Positions 28,738-49,036 of a stretch of 50,100 nt of DNA are shown one piece after another. The notes beneath the pieces are model-generated. The model did not search any database. It was given only the letters and a program-made list of their open reading frames with translations, and was not told where the DNA came from. Source of the DNA: Thermostichus vulcanus str. 'Rupite' (GTDB taxonomy: Bacteria; Cyanobacteriota; Cyanobacteriia; Thermostichales; Thermostichaceae); NCBI RefSeq assembly GCF_022848905.1, contig NZ_JAFIRA010000025.1, positions 1 through 50,100 of the forward strand, given 5' to 3'. Position 1 is the first letter of the stretch, and every line of letters begins with the position of its first letter. A program made the position numbers and the translations under genes.

Positions 28738-29442
28738 TTAGAGGTTGGTGTTTGGCAGTTCACTCAGTGCCTCCCGAGCAGCCTCTAAAGTTGAGTTGAT
28801 GTGAGCAACAGCAATGGCAGCAGCCTGCTCAGGATTTCGACGACGATACGCACTGAGGATCTGACGATGTTCTCGCTCAGACGACTGTCGTTGCAGAGGC
28901 TTTTTAGAAAATGAAAGATTGATGTAGAGATCGGCCAAGTCGGCCAGTTGCTGCAGTATCTGGAAAAGCCTAGTGTTGGAGTGAGCTTTGTAAAGCAGTT
29001 CGTGAAACTTTCGGTTGAGATCGATCCAGGTGGCCGGATCCGACTCACCTTCCATCTCGTCAAGAATCTCTTCCGCCTTATCAAGCATGCTGTCTTCAAT
29101 ACGATAAACCCCTTGTCGGATGTTAAGAGGCAACAGAGCTGCCCGGATTTCGAAAATCTCCTCAAGTTCAGTCAGGGTGGGGGTATGAACCACAGCACCT
29201 CGAAAGGGATCCAAATCTACCAACCCAATCGCTCCCAGTTCTCGTAAGGCCTCTCGAATTGGGGTGACACTAATGTTGAGAGTAGAGGCTAGTTCTGCCT
29301 GAATCAGGCGAGTGCCAGGGGGCAGCTGCCCTGAAACAATAGCATGCCGCAGGAATAAAGTGACATTTTCCTGGGCTGTCCGTAGTGAAAATCCAGGATG
29401 CTCAAGGGAAAGTTTGCCAGACAAACCGTTGACCTCAATCAC
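28738..29442 (-). CDS. GntR-family transcriptional regulator, FadR/FCD subfamily
   Basis: The 234-residue regulator has an N-terminal winged helix (about residues 22-90, with GQLPPGTRLIQAELASTLNI and VTPIREALRELGAIGLV). A C-terminal all-helical FCD ligand domain follows. Probable metal ligands of the FCD are Asp and His in WIDLNRKFHELLYKAH and the His of SEREHRQILSAY and AVAHINSTLEAA. FCD regulators usually sense small organic acids made by the pathway they control. It sits at the end of the transporter operon and reads the same way, with its own 306-base upstream gap and a tandem repeat in its promoter. I infer that it controls itself and the adjoining catabolic genes. Confidence 0.9.
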   Translation of the reverse strand: MIEVNGLSGKLSLEHPGFSLRTAQENVTLFLRHAIVSGQLPPGTRLIQAELASTLNISVTPIREALRELGAIGLVDLDPFRGAVVHTPTLTELEEIFEIRAALLPLNIRQGVYRIEDSMLDKAEEILDEMEGESDPATWIDLNRKFHELLYKAHSNTRLFQILQQLADLADLYINLSFSKKPLQRQSSEREHRQILSAYRRRNPEQAAAIAVAHINSTLEAAREALSELPNTNL

Positions 29443-31469: not shown

Positions 31470-32291
31470 TCATACTTGAGTTGGTAAGGCTCTCGGCTGC
31501 AGACTAGGGGGCTCTTGAGCTATCTCTTGAGTGAATAGGGCATCACGGACACGGTTCTCGGTTTCAAAAAAAACCTGCTCCCGCATCAAACCCAGGTGAC
31601 GAGGACGAGCCAGTGGAACCGGAACTTGCTCGATGATGCGTCCAGGACGCGCTGACATGACAAAGATCTGATCGGCCATCAACACTGCTTCTGCAATGCT
31701 GTGGGTGACCAACAGAGTGGTGATACCCGCCTCCGACCAGATGCGCAACAATTCTAGGTTCATGCGCTGGCGGGTGATCTCATCCAGGGCCCCAAAGGGT
31801 TCATCCAGCAGCAACACCTCCGGCTGCAACACCAAAGCTCGGGCAATGGAAACCCGTTGGCGCATCCCTCCCGACAGTTGGCTGGGCAGAGCCTGCTCAA
31901 ACCCCTCCAGCCCCACCAGCCGGATCAGCTCCTGGGGCGATGCTGCCGAGGGTAAACCAGATTTGCGAGCGATCTGGATGGGCAACCGCACATTGTCTAT
32001 CACGGTTCGCCAGGGCAGCAGGGTGGCCTCCTGAAAGACAAAGCCGATGGCATGTCGCTTGCGGACGCGGCTGGGGGGATCCCCGCCGATGGTTAAGGTG
32101 CCAGCAGTGGGTTGCAGGATATCGGCGATCAAGCGCAGTAGGGTGGATTTGCCGCAGCCGCTGGGGCCGATCAACGCCCCGAACTGCCCTCGCTGCAACT
32201 GTAGATCTACCTGATCCAAAACCGTAATGGACTGAGGTTTAAGACGAAATTGATGGCTGACCTGCCGCGCCTCGAGATGAGGTTCCCTCAT
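31470..32291 (-). CDS. ABC transporter ATP-binding protein (SsuB/TauB/ThiZ-like)
   Basis: The 273-residue ATPase has Walker A GPSGCGKSTLLRLIADILQP, the Q-loop FVFQEATLLPWRTVIDNV, the signature LSGGMRQRVSIARALV, Walker B VLLLDEPFGALDE and the switch His in LLVTHSIAEAVLMAD. It powers the two downstream permeases. Its start overlaps the end of the amidohydrolase gene by four bases (ATGA), so binding protein, amidohydrolase and ATPase are translationally coupled. The close operon form makes the amidohydrolase a likely enzyme for the imported compound. Confidence 0.95.
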   Translation of the reverse strand: MREPHLEARQVSHQFRLKPQSITVLDQVDLQLQRGQFGALIGPSGCGKSTLLRLIADILQPTAGTLTIGGDPPSRVRKRHAIGFVFQEATLLPWRTVIDNVRLPIQIARKSGLPSAASPQELIRLVGLEGFEQALPSQLSGGMRQRVSIARALVLQPEVLLLDEPFGALDEITRQRMNLELLRIWSEAGITTLLVTHSIAEAVLMADQIFVMSARPGRIIEQVPVPLARPRHLGLMREQVFFETENRVRDALFTQEIAQEPPSLQPRALPTQV

Positions 32292-33814
32292 TGGGTCACC
32301 TCCTGAGCCACCGCCGGCCTCTGAGTATGCTGGCCTTGGGCGTAGAAGCGGCGAATCTGGTCTTGAAAGGAACGCACCAAGGGTTGCAGGGCATAAACCT
32401 GAGCTGAGGCAGCTTGGGCTTGGGCGATGAGCTCCGTGCGGATGGCCGCTTCATCCACCCCAACCACCCGGCCCTGTTGCACGACTGGCTGCCCCCCAAT
32501 GATCAAACCGACCACATGCTCAGCTCGGGCTCTCCCCAATACCAGGTCTGTCTCATCACAGATATCTGGCAACACATCTTCCGATAGGGATCCATAGTTC
32601 AAAAAGAGCACATCTGCCGGGGATCCCACCTCCAGAGTTCCTGCCGTGGTCAAGCCTGTGACTGCCCTGGTCCCATGACGCATCGAGGCAGCAAAGATCT
32701 GGGCTGGAGTCACCGCCACATCCAGCCCCACCCCCGCATGGAGGGCATAGGTCAGCCGCAGCTCCCGCAGGGCGTCCTCGTCGTCATCCAGCGACATACC
32801 GTCCATCCCCAGCGCCACCGGGATCCCAGCCTTGAGCATGGGGGCTAGTGGTGCCAGACCGGAGCGTAAGCGCAAATTCGAACTGGTGTTCACCGATACG
32901 ATCACCCCTCGTTCCGCCAAGAGGTGCCACTCATCGGGCCGCAGCCAAACTCCATGGGCCACCGTCAACCTTGGGGAGAGCAATCCAATCTTGTCCAGAT
33001 AGCAGAGCAACCCCTGGGGATAGGTGGCATCTGCCCACTCTCGTTGGTAGCGGGTCTCAAACAGGTGCATATGTACCCGACGATTTTGGGCGGCTGAAGC
33101 GGCAGCTACCGCCTCGAGCAAGGGCTCCGAACACCATTGGGGGCCAATTGGGCCAAATTGCACCGACACCCGTTCGCTCTCGCAGCGAGCAGCAATAGCA
33201 GGCACCAAGGCCACTTGTTCTGCCACAGGCAACGGAGGTTGATCCCAAATATTGCGAATGGCCTGTTGCTGCTGGGCACTCAGGCCTGCCAATACCTGCC
33301 CATCCCCACCATAGGCCAGACGATTGCGGTCGCTCAGGGGTACTACAAAGGCCATCCGTAGGCCAACCTCCTGGGCAGCTCGACAAGCCGAGTTAGCCTC
33401 TTGCATCAGGGACTCGGGATCCGAACCTTGGGGATTGTGGCAGTGCACCACCGAGCCAACGCCACTGCGGGCCAGCTTAGCTAAGGCGTAGGCAGTCAGC
33501 AGATAGGGATCCACCTGAGGTTGGGCTCGTAATGCTGGGATCCAAAGCTCTAAAGCCTGATCCACTGCCCCAAAAGCTAGCGTAGGCAACCCCCGCCCAT
33601 GATCGTGGGCATTGGCTAAGGGAGGCATAGCCAGCAGCGACGTGGCCGACCCAGCGAGAGGATTAGATACAGCTGGAGAATCATCAAGGGCCGAATCCAA
33701 GGCTGTAATCTGGCCATGCCACCAGCTCAATCGCAGCGAATGACGGGCGGGCTGCACCCCAGGGTGGGTTAAAACCCGCTCCACAGCGATACTACTGACA
33801 ACTGACTCACTCAT
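32288..33814 (-). CDS. Amidohydrolase, cytosine deaminase / AtzB-like, embedded in a transporter operon
   Basis: The 508-residue amidohydrolase-fold enzyme has metal ligands in PPLANAHDHGRG (H-x-H), HMHLFETRYQREW, RLTVAHGVWL and VALGMDGMSLDDDEDALREL (catalytic Asp). This is the single-metal pattern of deaminases and N-dealkylating or dechlorinating hydrolases such as cytosine deaminase, AtzB and TrzN. C-terminal to the barrel is an extra helical tail of about 60 residues, rich in Gln and Ala. It lies between the binding protein and ATPase genes, each with a four-base ATGA overlap. I infer hydrolytic removal of an amine or side group from the imported ring compound. The substrate is not known. 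Confidence 0.85.
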   Translation of the reverse strand: MSESVVSSIAVERVLTHPGVQPARHSLRLSWWHGQITALDSALDDSPAVSNPLAGSATSLLAMPPLANAHDHGRGLPTLAFGAVDQALELWIPALRAQPQVDPYLLTAYALAKLARSGVGSVVHCHNPQGSDPESLMQEANSACRAAQEVGLRMAFVVPLSDRNRLAYGGDGQVLAGLSAQQQQAIRNIWDQPPLPVAEQVALVPAIAARCESERVSVQFGPIGPQWCSEPLLEAVAAASAAQNRRVHMHLFETRYQREWADATYPQGLLCYLDKIGLLSPRLTVAHGVWLRPDEWHLLAERGVIVSVNTSSNLRLRSGLAPLAPMLKAGIPVALGMDGMSLDDDEDALRELRLTYALHAGVGLDVAVTPAQIFAASMRHGTRAVTGLTTAGTLEVGSPADVLFLNYGSLSEDVLPDICDETDLVLGRARAEHVVGLIIGGQPVVQQGRVVGVDEAAIRTELIAQAQAASAQVYALQPLVRSFQDQIRRFYAQGQHTQRPAVAQEVTQ

Positions 33815-34848
33815 GAGATGCGGGTGGCTCCTTGATAGGCGGCCTCCAAAATCGCTGCCGTCATCACATCCGACGGCTCGAGAGCACTCTCGATGGCCGC
33901 AAAGTCGTTGGCTAGCAGGTCAATGCTCTGGGCGAACACCTCCTCGCTGATCCAGCACAGGCCCCGTTCTTCCGCCAACCCACCGGCGATCAGCTCCACT
34001 TGAGCCTTGGCTTCAGCAATTTGAGCCTCTAGATCCAGCCCCCGCTGCCCATAGGTATCTACCATCAACCGAGCTGTCTCCTCGGGGTTCTCCACGGCAA
34101 ACTGCCAACCTTTGATATCCGCCCGTAACCAACGCACCAACAGATCCGACTGGGTTTCTAGCACCTTGTCGGTGGTGAAGAAGGCGTTGCCATACTCCAC
34201 AAGGCCAAGATCATAGGTGTAGGCGATCTCAATCTCGACCCCCCGTTCCTGCAGAATGATGCCCTGGTTGGTGGCATAGCCGAAGTAGCCATCCACCTGC
34301 CCGGTGGCCAAGATAGCCGGATCTGTCCCCACCGGCACGAAAGTGACATCTGACTCCGACAGACCGTTTTTCTGCAACAGGGCAATGATCGGGGGACGCG
34401 AAAAATCCGGAATGGCAATGGTCTTGCCTGCCATTTCAGGCACAGAGAGAATGGGGGACTTCTTCAGACTCATCAGGGCAAATGGGGTTTTTTGAAAAAT
34501 GCAGGCAAACGCCTTAATGGGGGTGCCCTGGGCCCGGGCAATGATGATGTCGTTGCTGCCGGCATCCCCCAGCATCACCTGACCACTGGCCACCAGACTG
34601 ATGGGATCAATATTGGGGCCGCCGGTTTTGAAATCGGCTTCGATGCCTTCCTCGGCAAAATAGCCGTTTTCGATGGCGGCAAAGTGCCCCCCAAACTGGA
34701 CGCTCTTGACCCAGCCCAACTGAAAATCTACCGACTCGAAACTCTGGGCCTGGGCGGTTCGGGACAGGAGCCGAGAAGCTGACGACAGTGACAACACAGC
34801 GCCCCCTGCAAACATGCCCCCTTGAAGAAACTGCCGACGCTTGAACAT
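33811..34848 (-). CDS. ABC transporter substrate-binding protein, NMT1/THI5-like, Tat-exported
   Basis: The 345-residue protein starts MFKRRQFLQGGMFAGG, a twin-arginine signal (RRQFL) followed by a hydrophobic stretch and AQAQS cleavage region, so it should be exported folded. The mature part is an NMT1/THI5-like periplasmic binding protein: FQLGWVKSVQFGGHFAAIEN, ADFKTGGPNIDPISLVASGQ and GDAGSNDIIIARAQG. The family binds nitrate, sulfonates, taurine or pyrimidines such as thiamine precursors. It is the first gene of the leftward operon and overlaps the amidohydrolase by ATGA. An NtcA-type box lies 56 bases upstream. A TTG start at 34863 would add five residues. Confidence 0.9.
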   Translation of the reverse strand: MFKRRQFLQGGMFAGGAVLSLSSASRLLSRTAQAQSFESVDFQLGWVKSVQFGGHFAAIENGYFAEEGIEADFKTGGPNIDPISLVASGQVMLGDAGSNDIIIARAQGTPIKAFACIFQKTPFALMSLKKSPILSVPEMAGKTIAIPDFSRPPIIALLQKNGLSESDVTFVPVGTDPAILATGQVDGYFGYATNQGIILQERGVEIEIAYTYDLGLVEYGNAFFTTDKVLETQSDLLVRWLRADIKGWQFAVENPEETARLMVDTYGQRGLDLEAQIAEAKAQVELIAGGLAEERGLCWISEEVFAQSIDLLANDFAAIESALEPSDVMTAAILEAAYQGATRIS

Positions 34849-34903
34849 AGGTTTCAGGATCAACGGTTGAGTATGACTCTCCCAAGAAGATTAAGAACCT
34901 TTC

Positions 34904-34917: not shown

Positions 34918-34987
34918 CCTTTAGCCAGAAAGTGGCCCAAATAATATATGAAATAATATCAGGCCTCTGAATGTGGCCAGGAGCACC

Positions 34988-36034
34988 ATGAAGCTGTCGC
35001 TGATGACCGAATCGCGGTCGGAGTACTACGCTTTTGAGCTAGCGGCTGCGGCCCGTCGCCTTGCTGAAGAAGTGCTGGAGATTCAACCCGGCCAAGAGGT
35101 CTTAATCACTGCCGATACCCTCAGTGATGCTCGCGTAGTGCAGGCTACAGCTCAGGCTTGTTTTGCCGCTGGTGGGATCCCAGTGGTTATGACCTATCCC
35201 ACCGCCGCCAAGCCCCAATCGGAGCCTCCTGCTTCCGTAGCAGCGGCCCTAGCCTCTGCCGATATTTGGATCGAATACAGTCACGCCTACATTATGTACA
35301 CCCACGCTTGGCAGCGGGCAGTGGCTGCGGGAGTGCAATACTGCGCCTTTGGGGATATGGATGTGGACGGCCTTGTGCGCTGTTTTGGGCGGGTGAAGGT
35401 GCCGCTTCTAGAGACCTTTGGGGACTGCTTAATCGATCTACTCACCAACAGCCGTGACTTTCACCTCACCACAGAATTGGGCACAGACCTCCATTTCAGC
35501 AACGAGGGAGTTCCCATCGGTGCGTTTAGGATGAAGGCCAACCCCAAGCACATTCCCATCATGTTGGCTGGGCAGGTGTCGTGGTCGCCAGTGGCACAAA
35601 CCATGCAGGGTCGTTTTGTGGCGGACGGCATCCTCTATCCTCCTGAGGAGGTGGGCATCTTAACTGATAGGGTTATTCTCACGGTAGAGGCGGGTACTAT
35701 CACTCAGATCGAGGGAGGACGGGAAGCGCAGCTTCTCCAGAAGTGGATCGATAAACTGGCAGATCCCACCCTCTATAAAATTGCCCATACCTCCTACGGT
35801 TTCAACCCTGGTATCATGCAACCTACGGGCCGTATCACTGAAGACGAGAGAGCTTTTGGCTGTTTTAACTGTGGTTGGGGCGCTTGGGTCGATCGTCCCG
35901 CAGCGGGGCATTTTGATGTTACTGCCCTGCAGGTGAGCAGTTGGGTGGACGGGATCCCGTTGGCCAAGAATGGCCTTTTCGTCCATCCTGACCTGGCTGC
36001 CCTCTGCCGTGAGATGGGAGTGCCAGGACACTAA
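34988..36034 (+). CDS. M29 aminopeptidase / 2,5-dihydroxypyridine dioxygenase (NicX)-like protein
   Basis: The 348-residue protein resembles the family that joins M29 leucyl aminopeptidases and NicX, the iron enzyme opening 2,5-dihydroxypyridine. The last third has YKIAHTSYGFNPG, ITEDERAFGCFNCGWG and AGHFDVTALQVSS. The His of the first and the His-x-Asp of the last fit the iron ligands I recall for NicX. An ordinary M29 peptidase should show more metal-binding Glu and His, so I favour a NicX-like ring-cleaving or related role, without certainty. I chose ATG 34988 with AGGAG six bases before it; a GTG at 34973 is the alternative. It is the first gene of the rightward unit. Confidence 0.75.
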   Translation: MKLSLMTESRSEYYAFELAAAARRLAEEVLEIQPGQEVLITADTLSDARVVQATAQACFAAGGIPVVMTYPTAAKPQSEPPASVAAALASADIWIEYSHAYIMYTHAWQRAVAAGVQYCAFGDMDVDGLVRCFGRVKVPLLETFGDCLIDLLTNSRDFHLTTELGTDLHFSNEGVPIGAFRMKANPKHIPIMLAGQVSWSPVAQTMQGRFVADGILYPPEEVGILTDRVILTVEAGTITQIEGGREAQLLQKWIDKLADPTLYKIAHTSYGFNPGIMQPTGRITEDERAFGCFNCGWGAWVDRPAAGHFDVTALQVSSWVDGIPLAKNGLFVHPDLAALCREMGVPGH

Positions 36035-36124
36035 AAGGTGGTTTAGAAGGTGGTTTCGGTAGGTGGTACTGAGACGATAAGTACAAAGGATTCAGATGAT
36101 CTCCAGCCAATATCTGGGAGTGCC

Positions 36125-36895
36125 ATGTCAATGTCGGTAGATCCTGAGTGCTTTTCCCACAAAGTAGTTCTGGTCACGGGTGCTAGTTCTGGCATTGGTC
36201 AAGCTGTGGCCCTGCGCTTAGCCGCTCGTGGAGTCAAGGTGGGGGTGGCCGGGCGCTCAACCCAAGGGATCCAGCAGACCCTTCACCGATTGCAGGATGC
36301 CGGGGGACATGGGATCCCGTTGCCGATGGATGTGGGGATCCCGGAGCAGGTGGAAGGTGCTGTCGCTCAGCTAGAAGATACCTTTGGGGGTCTCGACTGG
36401 ATCGTCTGTGCGGCAGGCATCAGCCCCATGGGTAGCGTTTTGGAAACATCCTTTGATCTGTGGCAGGAGACGCTGCGGGTGGATTTGACGGGGGTGTTTC
36501 TTACCTGCAAAGCGGGGATCCCAGCGCTAATCAGGCGAGGGGGCGGGGCCATCGTCACCATTGCTGGCACTCTCGGCCTTTACGCCATGCCCCAGAAGGC
36601 CGCCTACTGTGCAGCTAAGGCGGGAGTGGTCAACCTCACCCGTCAAATGGCAATCGACTATGGCAAACAGGGGATTCGGATCAACTGCATTTGCCCTGGC
36701 TTCATTGAGACCCCGATCAACGCAGATTTAGACCCAGTCGTGAAGGAGCACTTCTTGGGCAAGTTGCCCCTACCTCGGGCTGGCTCAGCTGATGATGTCG
36801 CCTCAACAGTCCTTTTTTTGCTCAGTGAGGCCTCGACCTACACCACCGGAGCTGTGTTGTCGGTGGACGGGGGCCAGGGCTTGGGGCTGTTGTGA
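36125..36895 (+). CDS. Short-chain dehydrogenase/reductase with Gly at the catalytic Ser position
   Basis: The 256-residue SDR has the nucleotide motif VLVTGASSGIGQAVAL, CAAGISPMGS in place of NNAG, the Tyr-x3-Lys pair at Y161 and K165 (AAYCAAKAGVV) and CPGFIETPIN. The classical catalytic Ser should lie 13 residues before the Tyr. That position is G148 in TIAGTLGLY, with T149 next to it. Activity may be changed, or T149 may take over. The ATG at 36125, with GGGAG upstream, is chosen over a frame start at 36050 because the extension reads as noise. It follows the NicX-like gene by 90 bases and should oxidise or reduce a pathway intermediate with NAD(P). Confidence 0.85.
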   Translation: MSMSVDPECFSHKVVLVTGASSGIGQAVALRLAARGVKVGVAGRSTQGIQQTLHRLQDAGGHGIPLPMDVGIPEQVEGAVAQLEDTFGGLDWIVCAAGISPMGSVLETSFDLWQETLRVDLTGVFLTCKAGIPALIRRGGGAIVTIAGTLGLYAMPQKAAYCAAKAGVVNLTRQMAIDYGKQGIRINCICPGFIETPINADLDPVVKEHFLGKLPLPRAGSADDVASTVLFLLSEASTYTTGAVLSVDGGQGLGLL

Positions 36896-36923
36896 GTTGT
36901 AGATCCTGCAAGATCCCGTATCG

Positions 36924-36965
36924 GTAGCTGCCAATACAGTCCTACTCAAGGAGGTTGTTTATGGT
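36924..36965 (+). promoter_or_regulatory. NtcA-activated promoter of the 2OG oxygenase gene
   Basis: GTA-GCTGCCAA-TAC (36924-36937) is a perfect GTA-N8-TAC box. Exactly 22 bases later comes TATGGT (36960-36965), matching TAN3T. This is the canonical class II NtcA promoter arrangement. Transcription would begin near 36972, some 65 bases before the chosen start codon at 37037. Confidence 0.7.
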
Positions 36966-37036
36966 CAAGGCAATAAATCGTATATGTTATGCGATTTTGT
37001 GGTTTGTGTAACTTGTCTGAGGCGGTAGGAGGTGGC

Positions 37037-38098
37037 ATGGTTGCCGTTCAAGATCCCCATTCACGGCCTCAACCTCGCCAGGGGTGGGGTGGGCGCGACC
37101 CTGACGCAACGTTACAAGCTCCAGAGATTCCAGTCATTGATATTGGAGCGTTGGGATTTACGGATGAGCCGGACTCGGGACAGGCCGTTGCCCAGGCTAT
37201 CGGTCGAGCCTGCCAGGAGATTGGTTTTTTCTATGTGGTCAATCACGGGGTTCCTCAAGATTTGCGGGAGCAGGTATTTGTCGAAGCCAAGCGGTTTTTT
37301 GCTCTCCCCCTGGAAGAGAAGCTGAAGATTCCCGCCACCCGCGATCATTACCGGGGTTATCTGGCTCTACAAAGTAAAGGCTATGCCAATGGCAAAGGGG
37401 ACTTTTTTGAGGGCTTCAAGATGCAACTGGATCTGGGGCCTGAGGATCCCGATGTGAGGGCGGGCAAACCTTTGCATGCCCCCAACAAGTGGCCCGAGAA
37501 CCTGCCAGGATTTCGTGAAACCCTATTGACTTACCAAGCTGCCATGCACGAGCTGGCTGATCGTATTGCCCAGGGGTTTGCCTTGGCGTTAGGGGTAGAC
37601 CGCTATTTCTTTCGACCCTTTTTTCAAAAACCCCTCACTCAGCTCAGTCTGATGCACTACCCGCCCCAGCCCCCGGAAACGTTGGGAGACTACTTTGGGG
37701 TGCATCCCCATTCCGATACAGGTGCCTTCACCATTCTGATGCAGGACGAAACCGGTGGCCTCGAGGTGGGGCATCGCTCGGGGGAATGGGTCAGTGCTCC
37801 CCCCATTCCAGACACCTATTTGATCAACATTGGGGATATGATGGCCCGCTGGACAAACGACCGGTTTACTTCAACCCCTCATCGCGTCATTAACCGAGCC
37901 AACCAAAATCGCATCTCGGTACCCTTTTTCGTCAATCCTGACTACGACGCTGTGGTGGAGTGTATTCCCACCTGCCAGTCGGCAACGGTTCCCGCTCGCT
38001 ACCCCGCCACCCATGTGGGGGACTACATCTTGGGGGTTTACACCTCAGGCTGGCAAGGAGAGGAGGGCTTTCAAAAGGAATCCACCAGCTTGGTCTAA
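37037..38098 (+). CDS. 2-oxoglutarate/Fe(II)-dependent oxygenase (isopenicillin N synthase-like)
   Basis: The 353-residue enzyme has the DIOX_N region (EIPVIDIGALG, then EIGFFYVVNHGVP). The catalytic domain has iron ligands HPHSDTGAFTIL (H-x-D) and TSTPHRVINR (His), and the 2-oxoglutarate Arg-x-Ser in NRISVPFFVNP. The fold includes thymine-7-hydroxylase, flavonoid and gibberellin oxygenases and the ethylene-forming enzyme, so hydroxylation of a heterocycle is plausible but not shown. I chose the ATG at 37037 because AGGAGGT precedes it; 36989 lacks a ribosome site and adds a Cys-rich stretch. It is preceded by the textbook NtcA promoter and converges with the OPRT gene. Confidence 0.88.
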   Translation: MVAVQDPHSRPQPRQGWGGRDPDATLQAPEIPVIDIGALGFTDEPDSGQAVAQAIGRACQEIGFFYVVNHGVPQDLREQVFVEAKRFFALPLEEKLKIPATRDHYRGYLALQSKGYANGKGDFFEGFKMQLDLGPEDPDVRAGKPLHAPNKWPENLPGFRETLLTYQAAMHELADRIAQGFALALGVDRYFFRPFFQKPLTQLSLMHYPPQPPETLGDYFGVHPHSDTGAFTILMQDETGGLEVGHRSGEWVSAPPIPDTYLINIGDMMARWTNDRFTSTPHRVINRANQNRISVPFFVNPDYDAVVECIPTCQSATVPARYPATHVGDYILGVYTSGWQGEEGFQKESTSLV

Positions 38099-38179: not shown

Positions 38180-38755
38180 CTACCCACTCAACGGGATCCC
38201 TTGTTGACAGAGGGGACAATCCTGAGGATCCACGGCATCCATGCCCTGAAGCTCAAGGAGCACCTCTGTGGGGCATCCTAGGTCGATGGCAAAGATCCCC
38301 TTGGTGGCGACTAACCCCACTCCCACAGGGATCCCATTAGCTTGCCGCACAATCTCTACCAATTGCTTGGCAGTTCCCCCTGTTGTGGTAATGTCATCGA
38401 CTACTAGAACTCGAGCGCCAGGGACTAGTTCAAATCCCTCGATCAGCCGGTAACGCTGCTCGTCTTGGCTTTGGCGGGCAATAGCGACTTCAGCCCCTAA
38501 CCGTCTGGCGAGCTCAAAGGCCAAAATACTGCCTGCTTCATTGGCTCCCATCACCACATCAGGGCTTTGAGCCTGGAACCGACAAGCCAGCTCTACAAAA
38601 AGGGCCTCACAGGCGTTGGGATCCTGAAACAGCTTGATGCAGCGAAAAAAGCGGCTAGCATGAAGGCCGCTGGCCAGCTTGAAGTGCCCCTTTTGCAGGG
38701 CCCCCGAACGCTCTACCCACGCCAATAACGCTGCTGTGTCAGACAAGACAGACAA
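38180..38755 (-). CDS. Orotate phosphoribosyltransferase or close relative
   Basis: The 191-residue type I phosphoribosyltransferase has the PRPP loop RVLVVDDITTTGGTAKQLV and the FKLASGLHASRFFRCIKLF segment typical of orotate enzymes. GANEAGSILAFELARRLGAE is the pyrophosphate loop, and there is a C-terminal CPLCQQGIPL motif as in many PyrE proteins. It would join a pyrimidine base to PRPP. It ends the leftward unit, five bases after the GlcG-like gene, which follows the ring-opening amidohydrolase. Either it is the cell's PyrE placed here, or a second copy adapted to a related ring; whether pyrE occurs elsewhere would settle that. Confidence 0.88.
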   Translation of the reverse strand: MSVLSDTAALLAWVERSGALQKGHFKLASGLHASRFFRCIKLFQDPNACEALFVELACRFQAQSPDVVMGANEAGSILAFELARRLGAEVAIARQSQDEQRYRLIEGFELVPGARVLVVDDITTTGGTAKQLVEIVRQANGIPVGVGLVATKGIFAIDLGCPTEVLLELQGMDAVDPQDCPLCQQGIPLSG

Positions 38756-38760: not shown

Positions 38761-39189
38761 CTAGTTCTCCTGATGTTTAAGCGCCTGCATCAAAGCATCA
38801 ATCCCAGCCTGCCCTACCTCGACATCTTGATCGCCAGTGCCGGATCCCACCCCGACGGCGCCAATCACCTGCCCCTGAACCACAATGGGCAACCCACCCT
38901 TCAAGTTGGTTAGTTGTCCACCAGTTACCAAGCCCAGCTTCAGCTCCAGATCAGCAGGCACCAACCCCGTTGCCCCCCGTGATGAGGCTGCTGTTACCGC
39001 CTTTTGGGTTGAGGATAGCTGGCTCAGTACCTTGGCCCCATCCATACGCGCATAGGCTAGTAGATTGCCCGCCGGATCCACCACGGCAATACATTGGGGT
39101 ACCCCCATGGCTTTGGCTTTGGCGATGGCCCCGTTGAGTACTACTAGGGCCCCCTCACAGGTCAGCTCCGTCTTTTGGCAAAGATACAT
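38761..39189 (-). CDS. GlcG/HbpS family protein
   Basis: The 142-residue protein is a single GlcG/HbpS domain: LNGAIAKAKAMGVPQCIAVV, DPAGNLLAYARMDGAKVLS, TGGQLTNLKGGLPIVVQGQV and IGAVGVGSGTGDQDVEVGQAG. The family appears in many catabolic clusters and binds small ligands or haem; its biochemical part is mostly unknown. It lies between the ring-opening amidohydrolase and OPRT genes in one tight operon, so I infer an accessory role in the same pathway. Confidence 0.88.
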   Translation of the reverse strand: MYLCQKTELTCEGALVVLNGAIAKAKAMGVPQCIAVVDPAGNLLAYARMDGAKVLSQLSSTQKAVTAASSRGATGLVPADLELKLGLVTGGQLTNLKGGLPIVVQGQVIGAVGVGSGTGDQDVEVGQAGIDALMQALKHQEN

Positions 39190-39243: not shown

Positions 39244-40368
39244 TCAGTGCACCCGTGCGATAGCCGCCACCAGATTACTCCCTGGTGGGCCCTGATGTTC
39301 AAATCCTGCTGAGGCGAGAATCATGGGATCCCCTACAACGGAGGCCACCACCGCATTGGCCACTGCTTTAGCCATGATGCCCGCATAGCCTGCTAAAAAG
39401 TCGCTGTGGATGGTGTGCCGTCGGCCCCGCACTGACGTGACTGCATCGGCCCCACAATTGACGAACACCTGAGCAATGCGCTTCTGCTCCTCTGGTGTCA
39501 GCGGAAAGGTCTCTAGCCCAGCTCCTTTCAGAGCAGTGTGGATCCCGGACGTATCGAGCTGATCTTGCATGACCCCATGTCCGATGCGATAGGGACTAAT
39601 GGAGTGAGACGAATTGCCGATCACAAGGACTCGACAAGCCGACTGCTCCCCGCCTGCCGATACTGAACCTCGGGTGGTGTAGAGGTTAAAATCGCGGTTG
39701 ATGGCGGCATCACTGATGCGCTCGGCGGGGATTTCTCCCAAGGCCACCCCCACCCCCAAGGCACAGGCGGCCTTGGAAAAGGAGGAGGCTTGCCCAAGGT
39801 TAGTGCTGACCAAAGATTGTCCCCGCGCTTGAGCATCTGCCATCCGGGCGGGTGTCATGGCCGGACATTTGACTTCCACACAATGCACATCCTCCAAATC
39901 TGAAATACCCGCCTTCTGGATGGCCTCCTGTACGGCCATCGCGACTTTTTCCACCTGAGTGGTGCGGCCATAGTCCTCGGGCAACAGTTTGGGAGTATTG
40001 GCCACCCCAATGGCTAGCCTCTTCCCAGAAGGGGGATCCTGAGGAGGTAAGACAGTCCGCCTAGTAAAGATAGTGTAGTGGGGACTCATCAGACCGCCAC
40101 AAAGACCGATCATCATCAACGGGATCCGCTCAAACACCTCTTCTGTAGAGATCCCTAGAGACTGTGCCAACACCAGCTGCATACACAGAGCGGCGTAACC
40201 CCGGGCATAGCCTGTGCCTTCCGTCTGGGCAATGATAGCTTGGATCTCCTCGGCTTTGAGTTGGCCTTCCTGAAGCAGTGCTTGGAGACCTGTTACATCA
40301 TCAGGCGAGGACATCGGCAGGCGAAACACCTCGACATCGATCCAATCTGGCTCTCCGATCGGCACCAT
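39244..40368 (-). CDS. Ring-opening amidohydrolase, cyanuric acid hydrolase / barbiturase family
   Basis: The 374-residue protein belongs to the small AtzD/barbiturase family, which opens cyanuric acid or barbiturate. From memory of AtzD, the fold is three repeats, each with a Lys-Ser pair. Counted from ATG 40368, the second repeat keeps K167 (VEVKCPAMT) and S237 (SVSAGGEQ). The third keeps S353 (ASAGFEHQGP), with RGRRHTIHSD before it. The first is altered: K becomes Q48 (AQTEGTG), and the SGGTEG motif reads IGLCGGLMSPH. This suggests a distinct branch. I prefer ATG 40368 (GGAAAG before it) because it gives the family's length; the frame is open to 40518. It heads the GlcG-OPRT unit. Confidence 0.82.
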   Translation of the reverse strand: MVPIGEPDWIDVEVFRLPMSSPDDVTGLQALLQEGQLKAEEIQAIIAQTEGTGYARGYAALCMQLVLAQSLGISTEEVFERIPLMMIGLCGGLMSPHYTIFTRRTVLPPQDPPSGKRLAIGVANTPKLLPEDYGRTTQVEKVAMAVQEAIQKAGISDLEDVHCVEVKCPAMTPARMADAQARGQSLVSTNLGQASSFSKAACALGVGVALGEIPAERISDAAINRDFNLYTTRGSVSAGGEQSACRVLVIGNSSHSISPYRIGHGVMQDQLDTSGIHTALKGAGLETFPLTPEEQKRIAQVFVNCGADAVTSVRGRRHTIHSDFLAGYAGIMAKAVANAVVASVVGDPMILASAGFEHQGPPGSNLVAAIARVH

Positions 40369-40696: not shown

Positions 40697-40703
40697 ATGC
40701 TAC
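40690..40703. promoter_or_regulatory. NtcA-type box at the WYL gene start, facing the ring-opening operon
   Basis: The bases read GTA-AGCAATGC-TAC, a full GTA-N8-TAC match that covers the ATG of the WYL gene. Leftward, exactly 22 bases away, lies TAGACA, which has the TA but not the final T of TAN3T. It may activate the ring-opening unit, repress the cas operon, or be chance. It is weaker than the other two boxes. Confidence 0.4.
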
Positions 40704-41671
40704 GCCAGTTAGAACGAGTTTTGAAACTGGATATGCTTCTCCGCTCTGGGCAAAAGCAGACGGCCACTATGCTGGCTCAGGCTTTGGAGGTCAGCGAACG
40801 GACGGTGCGGGCGGATATTGATTTCTTGAAAGACCGCTTTCAAGCGCCGATTCAAACGAACCGGAAAGTAGGGTATCACTACACGGATCCGGACTGGCGG
40901 TTGCCGTCAATTCGGCTGACACAAGGGGAGCTGTTTGCCCTGACGCTGGGAGCCAGGATGCTGGAAGCCTATGCCGGTTCGGCCTATCGTTCTCAGCTTC
41001 AGTCGGCCATTGACCAGTTGGCGGAGCGGATCCCGGAGCAAGCTTGGGTGGATCTGCAACAGTTGGCCCAGGAGCGCATCCTGTTTCGGGTGGGAGCCGA
41101 GTTGGATCTGGATCCTCACATCTGGCAGGTGTTGGAGCAGGCGTGTCAGCAGCAGCGGCGGGTGTGGATACGCTATGCCACTCCGGGTAAGCCCATCTCT
41201 GAGCGGGAGCTGGATCCCTATGTGTTGCATTTCTCGCGCAGTAATCCCTATGTGACGGGCTGGTGTCACTTGAGGGGAGAGCCCCGCTGGTTTCGGATCG
41301 ACCGGATCCGGGAGATCAAGCTGTTGGAGGAGCGATTTGAGGTGAATCCCAACTTTGACCGGGAGGCGCATTTGGAGTCGGCCTTTCAACATGAGGTGGG
41401 CGGGATCCCTCAGGAGGTGGTGATTGAGTTTAATCCGGCTACGGCTCCCTACATTCGGGAGCGGCGCTGGCATCCTACTCAACAGATTGAGGAACATCCC
41501 GATGGATCCCTGAGGTTACACCTGGTGGTGCGGGGGCTCAATGAGGTGAAGCGGTGGGTGTTGTTTTATGGCAAGGGGGCGAGGGTGCTGGGGCCACCGC
41601 AATTAGTAGCGATGGTGCGGGATGAGGTTGAAGGAATGCAGGCTCAGTATCAGCGGGAGGAAGGGCAATGA
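40697..41671 (+). CDS. WYL-domain transcriptional regulator heading the cas operon
   Basis: The 324-residue protein has a DeoR-like winged helix at residues 1-60 (RSGQKQTATMLAQALEVSER, then TVRADIDFL). A WYL domain covers about residues 130-220 (RRVWIRYATPG, SRSNPYVTGWCHLRGEPRWF, then RIDRIREIKLLEE) and a C-terminal extension follows. WYL domains sense nucleic acids or other ligands, and WYL proteins often control CRISPR-Cas systems. Its stop overlaps the cas3 start (ATGA), so it is made with the Cas proteins. That supports a role as the operon's own regulator. It starts 328 bases from the divergent ring-opening gene. Confidence 0.9.
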   Translation: MLRQLERVLKLDMLLRSGQKQTATMLAQALEVSERTVRADIDFLKDRFQAPIQTNRKVGYHYTDPDWRLPSIRLTQGELFALTLGARMLEAYAGSAYRSQLQSAIDQLAERIPEQAWVDLQQLAQERILFRVGAELDLDPHIWQVLEQACQQQRRVWIRYATPGKPISERELDPYVLHFSRSNPYVTGWCHLRGEPRWFRIDRIREIKLLEERFEVNPNFDREAHLESAFQHEVGGIPQEVVIEFNPATAPYIRERRWHPTQQIEEHPDGSLRLHLVVRGLNEVKRWVLFYGKGARVLGPPQLVAMVRDEVEGMQAQYQREEGQ

Positions 41672-44391
41672 ACCAGCCAAGATTTTGGGCGAAGACGGGC
41701 AAGGCAGAGTTTGAAAACGGTCAGCCCAAGTACCATCCGGTGATTTGTCACTTAGCGGATACCGCAGCAGTGGCAATGGAGATTGTGCGATCGCACCTCA
41801 GCCCCATTGCCCGCCAGCATCTTGCCGAAGGCTTAGGATTACCTGATGGCGAGTCTCTAGTGCGCTTCTGCGGGTTCATGGCGGGGAGCCATGACCTAGG
41901 CAAGGTCAGTCCTGCCTTTCAGTTTCAGGTCAGTGATGTGGGAAAAGCCTTGGTGGGGGCAGGTCTGTATGACGGATGGGCTTCCTTGCCCTCGGAACGT
42001 CGCAGATCCCAAAATGCCCCTCACGGATTGGTGACTGCGGCCACATTGCCCGATTTTCTGGTGACCCTTGGAGTTGGTCGAGAGTTGTCTAAGCGTCAAG
42101 CCAAGCGATTGGCACGGAAACTGGGCACTATCGTTGGTGGGCACCATGGGTTCTTCCCTGCTCAGCCAGAGATTGATGAGCTGGATAGCGCGATCGCAGG
42201 TACCGATGAGCGTAGCGTCTGGCGACAGCACAGCCTCAGAATCTTTCAGCAACTTCAGTCCTTTGTGCAACTCACTGCTGAGGATTTACCCAGTCAGTGT
42301 GACAACGCCGCCGCCATGATTTTGGCAGGGTTAACGACGGTATCTGACTGGATAGCCTCCAATTCTGATAGTTTTCCCTACGCCAACGATGAACCGTTTG
42401 AGACTTATCAGACAGGGCTGGCTGACAAAGCAAAGCACGCTCTCAAGACCCAGGGCTGGCAACGCCCCACCACCGGGCATCCGCTCCCCTTCTCCAAACT
42501 TTTTGATTTCATTACCAAGCTTCGGCCTCTGCAATCTGCGGCAGTACAGCTCACTGAGAGCCTAATACCTCCCTGTCTGGTAATGGTGGAAGCCTCGATG
42601 GGGGAGGGCAAAACCGAAGCGGCGCTCTACCTGGCGGATCATCTACAACACCAAACGGGTGCGGGGGGCTTCTATATCGGCTTACCGACTCAAGCAACTA
42701 GCAACGCCATGTTTGAGCGAGTCAGAGCGTTTCTGCAAAAACGTTATGCCGATGAGGTGGTGAATCTCACCCTCAGCCACGGAGCCGCTGCTCTGAAAGG
42801 GGACTATCAAGAAACCGTCTGTCGACTGGATCAGGTTTACGACGAGGAGGGGCGAGGGGTTTTTGCCAGTGAATGGCATACGGCTCGCAAGCGCACGCTG
42901 TTGAGTCCCTATGGGGTGGGGACATTGGATCAAGGTTTGATGGGGGTGGTGCGATCGCGCCATCAATTTGTCCGGCTCTTTGGCTTAGCAGGGCGCACGA
43001 TCATCCTGGATGAGATTCACGCCTACGACTTGTACACCAGCACGCTCCTAGAGCGGTTTCTAGAATGGGCCGCGGTGCTAGGTTCTCCGGTGATTGCCCT
43101 CTCGGCCACGTTGCCCGCCAGTACCCGCCAGCGCTTATTGACCGCCTACGCGACTGGGTGTAACCAACCCGTTCCGCCTTTACCAGAGGCTCCCTACCCT
43201 CGCATGACGGCCTTTGCCAATGGGACAGCCGTAGCCCGATCCTTTTCTGCCTCGGATCATGTGTGTCGGCAGTTGGGCATTCACTGGATTCAAGATGATA
43301 ACTGGCCTGTAGCTCTCTCTCAGGTGCTCAAGGACTCCGGCGGCTGTGTAGCCGTCATTTGCTCTACGGTGAACCGCGCCCAGGCAGTGTACCAACGGTT
43401 GCAAGCGTTCTTTTCCTCGGAAGAACTTGGACTCTTCCATGGTCGCTTTCTATTCAAAGACCGGGAGAGGATTGAGGCCGATTGTTTGCGGCTATTTGGC
43501 AAAGGGGATGAGCATCGGCCCCAACGCTTTGTGCTGGTGGCTACCCAGGTCATCGAGCAAAGCCTGGATGTGGACTTTGATCTAATGATTAGCGATTTGG
43601 CTCCCATTGATCTGTTGCTTCAACGCTCTGGGCGGCTGCATCGCCACGTTCGGGATAAGCGGCCTCCAGGGTTGGAGTCTCCTCATTTGTGGATTGTGGA
43701 TCCCTCTTTCAATGACCAGGGCAAGGCTGACTTTCAAGAGAGTGGCTGTATCTACGACCGTCATATTTTGCTCAGAAGCTGGCTTACTCTGCGGCAGCGT
43801 CCCCAGGTGCAACTGCCTGAAGAGATGGATGCGTTGATCGAGTCGGTGTATGACCTGGATATGCCTATCCCTGAAGATTTAGAGCCGGTTCATGCCGAGG
43901 ATTGGGCAAACTCCCTGGAGAAGTACAAGACCGAAGAGGCTGAAGCAAAACAAGCCCAAGCCAATCGGGTGAAGATCCCACCGCCCCATGGAGATATCCA
44001 GCCAGACCAGTTCACCTATCTGAAAAAGGAGGACGACGAAAGCGCAATTGCCGCCGCTACCCGGCTGGGGGATCCCTCTGTGGCTACCATCTTTTTGCAG
44101 CGCACTGCGGCTGGATTGGTGTTTCCAGGATCCCAAGAACAGGTCAACCTTAATGCCCGTCCCGATCTGGCTTTGATCCGCAAACTGCTGGCCCACAGCA
44201 CTCGCATCTCCAAACGAGAGGTCGTCCAAAGCTTGTCGGCCCAAGAGAACCCGAACAATTGGACATCGGCATTGCTACGGAATTGCCGTTGTGTGGAGGT
44301 TGATGACCAGGGCATGGCAAGGGTGGGGGATTGGCGGCTGACGCTGGATCCCTTGTTGGGGGTTGTGATCGAGAAAGACGTGAACGATTGA
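41668..44391 (+). CDS. cas3: CRISPR-associated helicase-nuclease Cas3 (type I-E)
   Basis: The 907-residue protein degrades DNA marked by Cascade. The HD nuclease domain is at residues 1-220: CHLADTA (His28), MAGSHDLGKVSPAFQFQ (H75-D76) and GGHHGFFP. The helicase follows, with Walker A EASMGEGKTEAALYLAD near 312, DEIHAYD near 447, SATLPAST, and motif VI QRSGRLHRH. The C-terminal accessory domain starts about residue 740. The HD and helicase motifs are intact. Three classical HIP1 sites (GCGATCGC) lie in this gene. It is followed by cas8e after 16 bases. Confidence 0.96.
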   Translation: MNQPRFWAKTGKAEFENGQPKYHPVICHLADTAAVAMEIVRSHLSPIARQHLAEGLGLPDGESLVRFCGFMAGSHDLGKVSPAFQFQVSDVGKALVGAGLYDGWASLPSERRRSQNAPHGLVTAATLPDFLVTLGVGRELSKRQAKRLARKLGTIVGGHHGFFPAQPEIDELDSAIAGTDERSVWRQHSLRIFQQLQSFVQLTAEDLPSQCDNAAAMILAGLTTVSDWIASNSDSFPYANDEPFETYQTGLADKAKHALKTQGWQRPTTGHPLPFSKLFDFITKLRPLQSAAVQLTESLIPPCLVMVEASMGEGKTEAALYLADHLQHQTGAGGFYIGLPTQATSNAMFERVRAFLQKRYADEVVNLTLSHGAAALKGDYQETVCRLDQVYDEEGRGVFASEWHTARKRTLLSPYGVGTLDQGLMGVVRSRHQFVRLFGLAGRTIILDEIHAYDLYTSTLLERFLEWAAVLGSPVIALSATLPASTRQRLLTAYATGCNQPVPPLPEAPYPRMTAFANGTAVARSFSASDHVCRQLGIHWIQDDNWPVALSQVLKDSGGCVAVICSTVNRAQAVYQRLQAFFSSEELGLFHGRFLFKDRERIEADCLRLFGKGDEHRPQRFVLVATQVIEQSLDVDFDLMISDLAPIDLLLQRSGRLHRHVRDKRPPGLESPHLWIVDPSFNDQGKADFQESGCIYDRHILLRSWLTLRQRPQVQLPEEMDALIESVYDLDMPIPEDLEPVHAEDWANSLEKYKTEEAEAKQAQANRVKIPPPHGDIQPDQFTYLKKEDDESAIAAATRLGDPSVATIFLQRTAAGLVFPGSQEQVNLNARPDLALIRKLLAHSTRISKREVVQSLSAQENPNNWTSALLRNCRCVEVDDQGMARVGDWRLTLDPLLGVVIEKDVND

Positions 44392-46050
44392 AGGAGACGA
44401 TTGACAGATGTCATTTAATTTGCTGAACCAGCCCTGGATCCCAGTGATTACCCAGGACTTCCAAATCCAGGAGGTATCCCTGACTCAGCTCTTCCAAACC
44501 TGGGAAACCCTGCGGGAGCTCCAGGCGGATAATCCACCGACTACATTGGCTCTCTACCGCTTTCTACTGGCAATTCTCCATCGGGCCTATCAAGGGCCAC
44601 GCAATGCTGACCACTGGGAAGAAATCTTTGAGGACAACGGACAGAAAGCGATCACATATCTGGGACTCCAACGGGATCGCTTCGACTTGCTCCATCCTGA
44701 GCACCCTTTTATGCAGGATCCCGACTTGCCTCTGGAGAAAGCAGTTCCTATCTATGCCATCCATACCATGAGCACTTCTGAGGTGTTCTCCCATGAACAC
44801 GAGTGGAGTGGCTACAGCCTTTCGCTGGCCCAAGCGGCTCGTTTACTAGTGCGACTCCAAGGCGTGGATATCACTAGCCTGAGAGCGTTCTATGTTGGGC
44901 AAACCAGCGGCAATCGTTCAGCCGTCAATACTCCCACTATCAATGTTGCCAATGTGCTGGTGCGGGGCAGCACTTTGAAGCAGACCCTTCTGCTGAACTT
45001 GATGTGCTATGACCCAGCTTCTGAGGTGCCCAGTGTGGTTTCAGGAGAGGATTTACCTGCCTGGGAAACAAGCTATGGTGGCAAACCGAAGAAGACAATA
45101 CCAGAAGGCTATATCAGCTACCTCACCTTTCCCTGGCGGCGGTTGCGACTCTTTCCAGAGGGTGATCAGGTGAGCCAGTTGGCAATTACGATGGGTCACT
45201 CCCTGCCGGATAAAGTATCTCCCCAACAGTGGGAATGTGGAGTCGCCTACCGGGACGATAAGCCCGTGCGCCTGTCCCTGAGTAAACAGCTTTGGCGCGA
45301 TGCTGATAGCTTTCTGTTGACGGCAGAAAAGCAACATCGGCCCCGCATTGTCGATTGGCTGGCTGACCTGAAATCTGAAGACCTAGTTGATGATGTCGTA
45401 ACTTTCCAAGTCTCTGGCCTCAGCGCTGATAAGGCTAAGCCCCTGGGCTGGAGTTGGGAGCATTTTTCGGCCCCGATTCAGTATGTGACTGATGGGGACT
45501 TGGCTCAAACATTGAAGATTGCGATCACAATCGCCGAAGACCACCAACAAATCTTCCGCTCCTCTCGAGGTAGCCCCTACTTTGCCCTGGCAGAGGCTCT
45601 CAAGAACGGGGATCCTGGTAGTCTTGCCAATGCCTTGGATGGGGAATCCCGCTACTGGGCCAGGTTAGATCGTGCTTTTCCTGAGCTGCTTAACGCCCTG
45701 CCCCAGGATAAGCAGACGGGAGCTGATGGCATCATCCGTTATGGGTTTAAGGAACTTCCCGCCTGGACTCAAACCGTCCAAACCGCCGCTCGGGGAGCCT
45801 TTACCGAGTCGATTGAGTCCATTCGCAACTACAAGGCTAGAGCCGTTGCTCTCCGCACCCTGGAGTGGAAACTTGCAGATTTGCGAGCCAGCCCAGAGGA
45901 GAAGGAGGCCAAAAAAGCAAAAGCTGCCGCCAAGAAAAACACCAAGAAAAAACAAGCCGTTGCCCAATAGGAGCTTGGTTCATGACCACAACCCAGACCC
46001 CACCTCGACTAGAGCGAGAAACAAAATTCCTACAGGCGATTCGCGATCGC
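41787..46050. repeat. Four classical HIP1 palindromes (GCGATCGC) confined to the cas operon
   Basis: They start at 41787, 42190, 42951 (all cas3) and 46043 (cse2). I found no others in the window, whereas GGGATCCC is the common octamer elsewhere and is also present here. The clustering suggests that this stretch evolved in a genome that uses the standard HIP1. Confidence 0.75.
44408..45970 (+). CDS. casA: Cascade large subunit Cas8e (Cse1/CasA)
   Basis: The 520-residue protein begins MSFNLLNQPWIPVI, the standard Cse1 opening. It continues with ALYRFLLAILHRAYQG, RFDLLHPEHPFMQDPDL and LQGVDITSLRAFYVGQTSG, all Cse1-like. The C-terminal four-helix bundle ends in a very Lys-rich tail (KKAKAAAKKNTKKKQ), unusual in degree. 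Cse1 recognises the PAM, contacts Cse2 and recruits Cas3. It lies between cas3 and cse2, with small gaps. Confidence 0.95.
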   Translation: MSFNLLNQPWIPVITQDFQIQEVSLTQLFQTWETLRELQADNPPTTLALYRFLLAILHRAYQGPRNADHWEEIFEDNGQKAITYLGLQRDRFDLLHPEHPFMQDPDLPLEKAVPIYAIHTMSTSEVFSHEHEWSGYSLSLAQAARLLVRLQGVDITSLRAFYVGQTSGNRSAVNTPTINVANVLVRGSTLKQTLLLNLMCYDPASEVPSVVSGEDLPAWETSYGGKPKKTIPEGYISYLTFPWRRLRLFPEGDQVSQLAITMGHSLPDKVSPQQWECGVAYRDDKPVRLSLSKQLWRDADSFLLTAEKQHRPRIVDWLADLKSEDLVDDVVTFQVSGLSADKAKPLGWSWEHFSAPIQYVTDGDLAQTLKIAITIAEDHQQIFRSSRGSPYFALAEALKNGDPGSLANALDGESRYWARLDRAFPELLNALPQDKQTGADGIIRYGFKELPAWTQTVQTAARGAFTESIESIRNYKARAVALRTLEWKLADLRASPEEKEAKKAKAAAKKNTKKKQAVAQ

Positions 46051-46518: not shown

Positions 46519-46621
46519 AACTGTTGAGATTTACCAGCCATGCCTGAAAGGATATGAACAGGGCAAGAGCAATGAAGATGAGTCTGGCTTTATTCACCTA
46601 ACCCAATTTGAGGAAATTACC

Positions 46622-47755: not shown

Positions 47756-47756
47756 A

Positions 47757-49003: not shown

Positions 49004-49036
49004 AGAACTCGGCCAACCTTAGTCTGGAGATTGACC

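What the first reader, a model, noticed from the sequence alone, without database searches (positions are those of the whole stretch)
39244..40368. AtzD/barbiturase relative lacking the first Lys-Ser pair
The family is small and its members have three repeats with Lys-Ser dyads. Here repeat 1 has Gln (AQTEGTG) in place of Lys and IGLCGG in place of SGGTEG, while repeats 2 and 3 keep their Ser and repeat 2 its Lys. SSG is SAG in repeats 2 and 3. This suggests a third branch with a new substrate. The alignment is from memory.
Basis: partly seen in the sequence, partly recalled or inferred. Interest (0 to 1): 0.75.

Follow-up and report, generated by a model that had tools for sequence, protein, structure and literature searches.

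The report
One-dyad relative of cyanuric acid hydrolase
A cyanobacterial ring-opening enzyme of the cyanuric acid hydrolase family has lost two of its three matching catalytic pairs in exactly the same way as eight relatives in other cyanobacteria and proteobacteria, which points to a distinct branch that opens a different, less symmetrical ring and offers a natural test of which pair does the chemistry.

Summary
The gene (39244-40368, MINUS strand) is a full-length AtzD/TrzD/barbiturase-family protein (PF09663 439 bits; 46% identical to Moorella cyanuric acid hydrolase). A proper alignment gives Lys1->Gln, Ser1->Ile and also Lys3->Asn, Arg2/Arg3->Lys and the metal-ligand Glu->Gly; Lys2, Ser2, its Glu partner, Arg1 and Ser3 are kept. 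It is not error or decay: nine proteins (six cyanobacterial, three proteobacterial) carry the identical active-site pattern and form one clade (100/99 support even without active-site columns); none of 43 other members shares it. The single remaining dyad is the one that Azorhizobium and Moorella studies call catalytic, so a Ser-Lys hydrolase is still likely; the clade argues against the rival Ser85-Lys42 assignment. Neighbours are conserved: an HbpS-like gene (7 of 9 loci), pyrimidine-type transporters, deaminase-like amidohydrolases, and in all three proteobacterial loci FdrA+AllG, subunits of oxalurate (acylurea) transcarbamylase. Best reading: a hydrolase opening an asymmetric cyclic ureide to an acylurea acid; exact substrate unknown. 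'Third branch' is inaccurate: six groups were already described and missing dyads reported in some. New variant of a known kind.

The parts
39244..40368 (-). divergent (single-dyad) AtzD/TrzD-family ring-opening amidohydrolase; family homology spans 39253-40335
   Evidence: PF09663 439 bits, TIGR02714 334 bits (cut-off 153), NF052395 CAH equivalog 350.5 below its cut-off 360; 46% identity to 6BUM
40225..40227 (-). codon of Gln37 (residue numbers count from Val at 40335) in place of AtzD Lys42 (repeat 1)
   Evidence: alignment, 9/9 clade members Gln
40108..40110 (-). codon of Ile76 in place of AtzD Ser85 (repeat 1)
   Evidence: alignment, 9/9 Ile
39868..39870 (-). codon of Lys156, predicted general base of the remaining dyad (AtzD Lys162)
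   Evidence: alignment, 9/9 Lys
39658..39660 (-). codon of Ser226, predicted nucleophile (AtzD Ser233)
   Evidence: alignment, 9/9 Ser; role from PMC4051656 and PMC6557486
39646..39648 (-). codon of Glu230, partner of the Lys of dyad 2
   Evidence: alignment, 9/9 Glu
39457..39459 (-). codon of Asn293 in place of AtzD Lys296 (repeat 3)
   Evidence: alignment, 9/9 Asn
39451..39453 (-). codon of Gly295 in place of the metal-ligand Glu298
   Evidence: alignment, 9/9 Gly; ligand role from PMC3758960, PMC6557486
39310..39312 (-). codon of Ser342 (AtzD Ser344), kept without its Lys
   Evidence: alignment, 9/9 Ser
38761..39189 (-). HbpS/GlcG-like protein (PF03928), next gene downstream; adjacent to the clade member in 7 of 9 loci
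38180..38755 (-). orotate phosphoribosyltransferase-like protein; orthologue near the Kaiparowitsia clade member
   Evidence: TIGR01367 112.8 bits, below cut-off 150; 245 bits to L016 4330-4863
33811..34863 (-). NMT1/THI5-type substrate-binding protein; nearest solved relative binds a pyrimidine
   Evidence: PF09084 160 bits; 3IX1, E 3.8e-25
32288..33814 (-). deaminase-like amidohydrolase; relative (383 bits) in the Burkholderiales locus of the same clade
   Evidence: PF01979
29749..32291 (-). ABC permeases (29749-30654, 30558-31454) and ATPase (31470-32291) of the same transporter
   Evidence: PF00528 for 30558-31454
28738..29442 (-). GntR/FCD regulator; orthologue stands directly upstream of the clade member in Gloeocapsopsis, Kaiparowitsia, G392 and G405
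   Evidence: 248-292 bits

Best explanation
It is a working ring-opening amidohydrolase of the AtzD (Toblerone) fold that runs on one Ser-Lys dyad, Lys156-Ser226 with Glu230, contributed by the middle repeat. Lys156 deprotonates Ser226, which attacks one carbonyl of a cyclic ureide; water then frees an open-chain acylurea acid (R-CO-NH-CO-NH2). Repeats 1 and 3, which in cyanuric acid hydrolase each supply a further dyad for the three-fold symmetric ring, here only bind: Gln, Ile, Asn and two Lys replace Lys, Ser, Lys and two Arg, so the pocket suits an asymmetric ring such as a barbiturate-type pyrimidine-trione or a parabanate/hydantoin-type ring. The acylurea is then phosphorolysed by a FdrA/AllG transcarbamylase in the proteobacterial hosts, or hydrolysed by other amidases in cyanobacteria. 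SHOWN here: family membership, residue pattern, clade, conserved neighbours, purifying selection. INFERRED: activity, nucleophile, acylurea product, substrate class.
For: Lys156, Ser226 and Glu230 are retained in 9/9 members; these match the only dyad conserved through the family and the one whose Ser->Ala costs most, about 10^9-fold (PMC4051656; PMC6557486). The replacements at the lost positions are themselves fixed in 9/9: all 15 active-site columns are invariant against 36% of columns overall, hypergeometric P about 1e-7 (such columns are always more conserved than average, so this is a guide only). dN/dS about 0.07 for one close pair. Clade 100/99 without any motif columns. FdrA and AllG lie within 0.3-8 kb of the gene in 3/3 proteobacterial loci, while AllG occurs in 35 of 372 sampled Alphaproteobacteria; AllFGH acts on the acylurea oxalurate (PMC11326118). 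An HpxZ 'oxalurate catabolism' protein lies in the Rhodoplanes operon (195 bits, cut-off 135). Carbamate kinase near two of the three loci. Deaminase-like amidohydrolases and NMT1 or BMP transporters lie nearby.
Against: No activity has been measured. In cyanuric acid hydrolase, single Ala mutants of Lys40, Lys285 or Ser79 already lose 10^4 to 10^8-fold activity (PMC4051656), so the loss of three of the six dyad residues could also mean loss of hydrolysis. Cyanobacterial hosts carry no AllG, so the acylurea route is not shown for the window genome itself. FdrA-AllG also neighbours an ordinary three-dyad member in one alphaproteobacterium, so it marks the family's product type, not this branch's substrate. 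The AlphaFold model was too poor to use (mean pLDDT 61.8).
Confidence: 0.55

Rival explanations
1. It is simply a barbiturase or cyanuric acid hydrolase with altered residues and a known substrate.
For: 39-46% identity to cyanuric acid hydrolases and 37% to barbiturase; Lys at 325 as in barbiturase; in Gloeocapsopsis it stands next to an ordinary cyanuric acid hydrolase-like paralogue.
Against: Misses the CAH equivalog cut-off (350.5 against 360); lacks two dyads, two Arg and the metal ligand; lacks the barbiturase signature Asn195/His321/Val345. All five other cyanobacterial genomes with it also keep an ordinary paralogue, which would be redundant if it opened cyanuric acid.
Confidence: 0.2
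2. It is no longer a hydrolase: a binding, sensing or scaffold protein that works with the HbpS-like partner.
For: Three of six dyad residues and the metal ligand are gone; HbpS-like relatives include EfgA (a formaldehyde sensor, own knowledge) and haem-binding proteins; HbpS-like gene directly downstream in 7 of 9 loci.
Against: The whole repeat-2 catalytic set (Lys, Ser, Glu, with the KCPAMTP and SAGGE motifs) is invariant; the loci are rich in catabolic enzymes and transporters that leave a ring-opening step to be filled.
Confidence: 0.15
3. A special case of the best explanation: the substrate is a five-membered ring, parabanate or a hydantoin, whose opening gives oxalurate or another ureido acid.
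For: FdrA and AllG, carbamate kinase and HpxZ (oxalurate catabolism) next to it in Rhodoplanes; FdrA and AllG in the other two proteobacterial loci.
Against: AllF/AllG paralogues may act on other acylureas such as ureidomalonate; AllH was not looked for; no AllG in the cyanobacteria.
Confidence: 0.2
4. Assembly error or decaying gene.
For: Found in only one genome of its genus: five other sampled same-genus genomes lack it.
Against: Open frame throughout; identical pattern in nine independent genomes of three classes; dN/dS about 0.07 for one pair.
Confidence: 0.01

Closest known systems
Cyanuric acid hydrolases AtzD, TrzD, Azorhizobium CAH, Moorella CAH (PF09663; 4BVQ, 5T13, 4NQ3, 6BUM)
   Same: Full-length homology over all three repeats, 39-46% identity; repeat-2 Lys-Ser-Glu set, Arg of repeat 1, Ser of repeat 3
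   Different: Lys1, Ser1, Lys3, Arg2, Arg3 and the metal-ligand Glu replaced; four-residue deletion after QTEGTG; different neighbourhood
Barbiturase (5HWE, group VI)
   Same: Lys at position 325; 37% identity
   Different: Barbiturase keeps all three dyads and the metal Glu; its Asn195/His321/Val345 signature is absent here
Group V members of unknown substrate: Frankia 5HY0 and the second A. caulinodans member (L043, very probably AZC_3203, inactive on cyanurate and barbiturate according to PMC3758960)
   Same: Lys/Arg at 325, Gly/Ala at 345 and Gly at 346 fit the published group V signature; Frankia also lacks the metal Glu; SAGGE motif shared with L043
   Different: Both keep all three dyads; L043 groups apart from this clade and Frankia's place is unstable
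AllFGH oxamic transcarbamylase of E. coli (related to the neighbours, not to the protein itself)
   Same: FdrA and AllG homologues beside the proteobacterial members
   Different: In E. coli the ring compound is allantoin, opened by an unrelated allantoinase; no PF09663 protein rings in the control genomes

Membership tests
AtzD/TrzD/barbiturase superfamily (PF09663, TIGR02714) | full-length profile match above curated cut-off | tested here: met
   439.4 against 25 bits; 333.8 against 153.1 bits
AtzD/TrzD/barbiturase superfamily (PF09663, TIGR02714) | family-wide Lys-Ser dyad of repeat 2 with its Glu | tested here: met
   Lys156, Ser226, Glu230, 9/9
AtzD/TrzD/barbiturase superfamily (PF09663, TIGR02714) | Toblerone fold | tested here: inconclusive
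   46% identity to 6BUM implies it; own model too weak
Cyanuric acid hydrolase | NF052395 equivalog cut-off | tested here: not met
   350.5 against 360 bits
Cyanuric acid hydrolase | three Ser-Lys dyads | tested here: not met
   one complete dyad; Ser without Lys in repeat 3; neither in repeat 1
Cyanuric acid hydrolase | three substrate-binding Arg | tested here: not met
   Arg54 kept, Arg195 and Arg325 are Lys
Cyanuric acid hydrolase | metal site with Glu298 | tested here: not met
   Gly295 in 9/9
Cyanuric acid hydrolase | hydrolysis of cyanuric acid | not testable with these tools
   needs purified enzyme
Barbiturase (group VI) | Asn195, His321, Lys325, Val345, Ser/Ala346 | tested here: not met
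   Lys, Ala, Lys, Ala, Gly at these columns (position 321 lies beside a gap and is uncertain)
Group V (AZC_3203/Frankia) | Lys/Arg325, Gly/Ala345, Gly346; position 195 absent | tested here: inconclusive
   325, 345 and 346 fit, but residue 195 is present as Lys
Group V (AZC_3203/Frankia) | same clade | tested here: inconclusive
   AZC_3203-like proteins fall elsewhere; Frankia is next to the clade in one tree (99/92) and outside it in another, on a very long branch

The most novel reading that the evidence does not exclude
A new enzyme activity: a single-dyad Toblerone hydrolase opening an asymmetric cyclic ureide (barbiturate-, parabanate- or hydantoin-like) to an acylurea, coupled in proteobacteria to a FdrA/AllG transcarbamylase and carbamate kinase that recover ATP, and serving as a natural demonstration that the repeat-2 serine is the family's nucleophile.
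Probability: 0.4. Interest if true: 0.72.

Novelty: new variant of a known kind. Interest (0 to 1): 0.55.

Why it matters
Two lines of published structures disagree about which of three equivalent Ser-Lys pairs is catalytic (Ser85-Lys42 in PMC3758960; Ser226-Lys156 in PMC4051656 and its equivalent in PMC6557486). A natural clade that keeps only the second pair makes the question directly testable. It also suggests how a three-fold symmetric active site can be reshaped for an asymmetric ring, and it points to a possible route for N-heterocycle catabolism in cyanobacteria and proteobacteria that ends, in the latter, in transcarbamylation.

Tried and rejected
Error or pseudogene: rejected by nine orthologues. 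Shifted alignment hiding a Lys or Ser: rejected, no candidate residue near the lost sites. Cys79 of IGLCGG as a new nucleophile: rejected, it is Val in the proteobacterial members. Group V identity: AZC_3203-like proteins (identified because the same genome holds the 4NQ3 sequence letter for letter) keep all dyads and fall elsewhere. HpxZ-like gene of the window genome: it lies beside a phosphofructokinase-like frame, not in a catabolic operon. Viral contigs: no relative. Plasmids: only matches under 60% identity, best 42%, all carrying names of ordinary members where annotated. Papers: the key 2012, 2016 and 2017 family papers are not held, so which of the ten clades of PMC4051656 lack dyads could not be read.

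Full report
OBSERVATION. The window protein is on the minus strand, 39244-40368. It matches PF09663 over its whole length at 439 bits and TIGR02714 at 334 bits, but scores just under the cut-off of the cyanuric acid hydrolase equivalog NF052395, 350.5 against 360. Residue numbers below count from Val at 40335. Aligned with six solved family members (pieces; alignments), repeat 1 has Gln37 for Lys42 of AtzD, Ile76 for Ser85 and Gly80 for Glu89, with four residues missing after QTEGTG. Repeat 2 has Lys156, Ser226 and Glu230 intact and Lys188 for Arg195. Repeat 3 has Asn293 for Lys296, Gly295 for the metal ligand Glu298, Lys323 for Arg325, and Ser342 intact.

NOT CHANCE. Close relatives exist in Gloeocapsopsis crepidinum, Kaiparowitsia implicata and a Synechococcaceae MAG (70-72%), and in a Burkholderiales MAG and Rhodoplanes serenus (56 and 53%); two further cyanobacterial genomes and one further alphaproteobacterium (G1248) bring the number to nine. 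All nine share the same residue at all 15 inspected active-site columns, while 43 other family members collected here, including Frankia 5HY0 and barbiturase, keep Lys and Ser of repeats 1 to 3. The nine form one clade at 100/99, also without the motif columns. dN/dS of a close pair is about 0.07. The branch is rare: family members of any kind occur in 5 of 386 genomes of the phylum sample above the cut-off, this type in 1 of 349 sampled Burkholderiales (the starting genome itself) and 2 of 385 sampled Alphaproteobacteria (one of them the starting genome). In the window's own genus five other sampled genomes lack it, so the gene is patchy.

MECHANISM. In Azorhizobium cyanuric acid hydrolase all three dyads matter, but S226A costs most, and that dyad alone is conserved throughout the 119 sequences then known, with Glu230 beside the Lys (PMC4051656). 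The Moorella structures favour the equivalent pair (PMC6557486). PMC3758960 favours Ser85-Lys42. The present clade keeps exactly the first-named pair with its Glu and has fixed Ile and Gln at the other. If these proteins are active, the Ser85 hypothesis cannot hold for them. The loss of the metal-ligand Glu (PMC3758960, PMC6557486) and of two of the three substrate-binding Arg breaks the three-fold symmetry that matches cyanuric acid, so a less symmetrical ring is expected (inference).

NEIGHBOURHOOD. In 7 of 9 loci the next gene is an HbpS-like protein (window, Gloeocapsopsis, G392, G405, Burkholderiales, Rhodoplanes, G1248); it is absent beside the Kaiparowitsia and SM2_3_1 genes. A GntR/FCD regulator of the window's own type stands directly upstream in four cyanobacterial loci. 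An NMT1/THI5-type binding protein, whose nearest solved relative binds a pyrimidine, occurs in the window, Gloeocapsopsis (in two pieces), Kaiparowitsia, Burkholderiales and G1248 loci. The window's deaminase-like amidohydrolase has a 383-bit relative in the Burkholderiales locus. In Rhodoplanes the order is FdrA and AllG (divergent), this gene, HbpS-like, LOG-type nucleotide hydrolase, HpxZ, with a second AllG and a carbamate kinase some 5-8 kb on. In Burkholderiales and G1248 the FdrA-AllG pair is again close. AllFGH of E. [quoted passage not shown] Family ring opening yields acylureas (carboxybiuret from cyanurate; ureidomalonate from barbiturate, own knowledge), so the pairing is chemically coherent (inference). 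One ordinary three-dyad member also sits beside FdrA-AllG, which supports the product class but not a specific substrate. The cyanobacterial hosts have no AllG.

RELATION TO ORDINARY PARALOGUES. Five of the six cyanobacterial genomes with this type also carry an ordinary three-dyad paralogue, in tandem in Gloeocapsopsis and beside an isochorismatase-family gene with 252 bits to biuret hydrolase in G405 (similar gene in G392). The window genome has only the single-dyad gene. Redundancy therefore speaks against cyanuric acid as the substrate, weakly.

KNOWN OR NEW. The fold family, its six groups, unknown-substrate groups and the variability of dyads 1 and 3 in some subgroups are published (PMC3758960, PMC4051656). 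Not found in the papers that could be read: this clade, its fixed replacements, its loss of the metal ligand, and its coupling to HbpS-like and FdrA-AllG genes. The 2012, 2016 and 2017 family papers and the figure listing the ten clades could not be read, so part of this may already be drawn there. Verdict: real, a new variant of a known kind; substrate unknown; interest moderate to good because it makes the nucleophile question testable.

Noticed in passing
window 41668-49966 (+): Type I-E CRISPR-Cas genes: Cas3, Cse1, a small ORF at the Cse2 position, Cas7, Cas5e, Cas6e, Cas1e, preceded by a WYL/HTH-like regulator gene at 40697-41671; Cas2 and the array are not seen before the contig end.
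   Followed up: partly
window 9500-10759 (-) and 1943-3235 (+): A GTP cyclohydrolase II-like protein (NF005536, 772 bits; of the kind used in the URC uracil pathway, from memory) and a strong cytosine deaminase (NF005748, 806 bits): further pyrimidine-type genes in the same contig.
   Followed up: no
window 34973-38098 (+): An M29-peptidase-like protein below its Pfam cut-off, an SDR and a 2-oxoglutarate/Fe(II) dioxygenase in a row, facing the divergent AtzD cluster; with the Rieske oxygenase at 27524-28636 they suggest oxidative catabolism of a small ring compound.
   Followed up: partly
L004/L008 (G170): The ordinary cyanuric acid hydrolase-like gene is split in two frames near its end: a frameshift or sequencing error.
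   Followed up: no
L005/L009 (G008): Only a fragment of a family member remains, joining positions 189-251 to 338-357 of the profile: a remnant gene.
   Followed up: no
L100 (G1186:C268): Ordinary three-dyad family member with a transporter-like gene and FdrA-AllG on one 6 kb contig: a possible transcarbamylase route for cyanuric acid products.
   Followed up: partly
L072-L076 (A. caulinodans and relatives): Group V-like members lie beside BMP-type ABC transporters, and three of them are followed by GatA-type amidases, suggesting nucleobase-like substrates for that unknown group too.
   Followed up: partly
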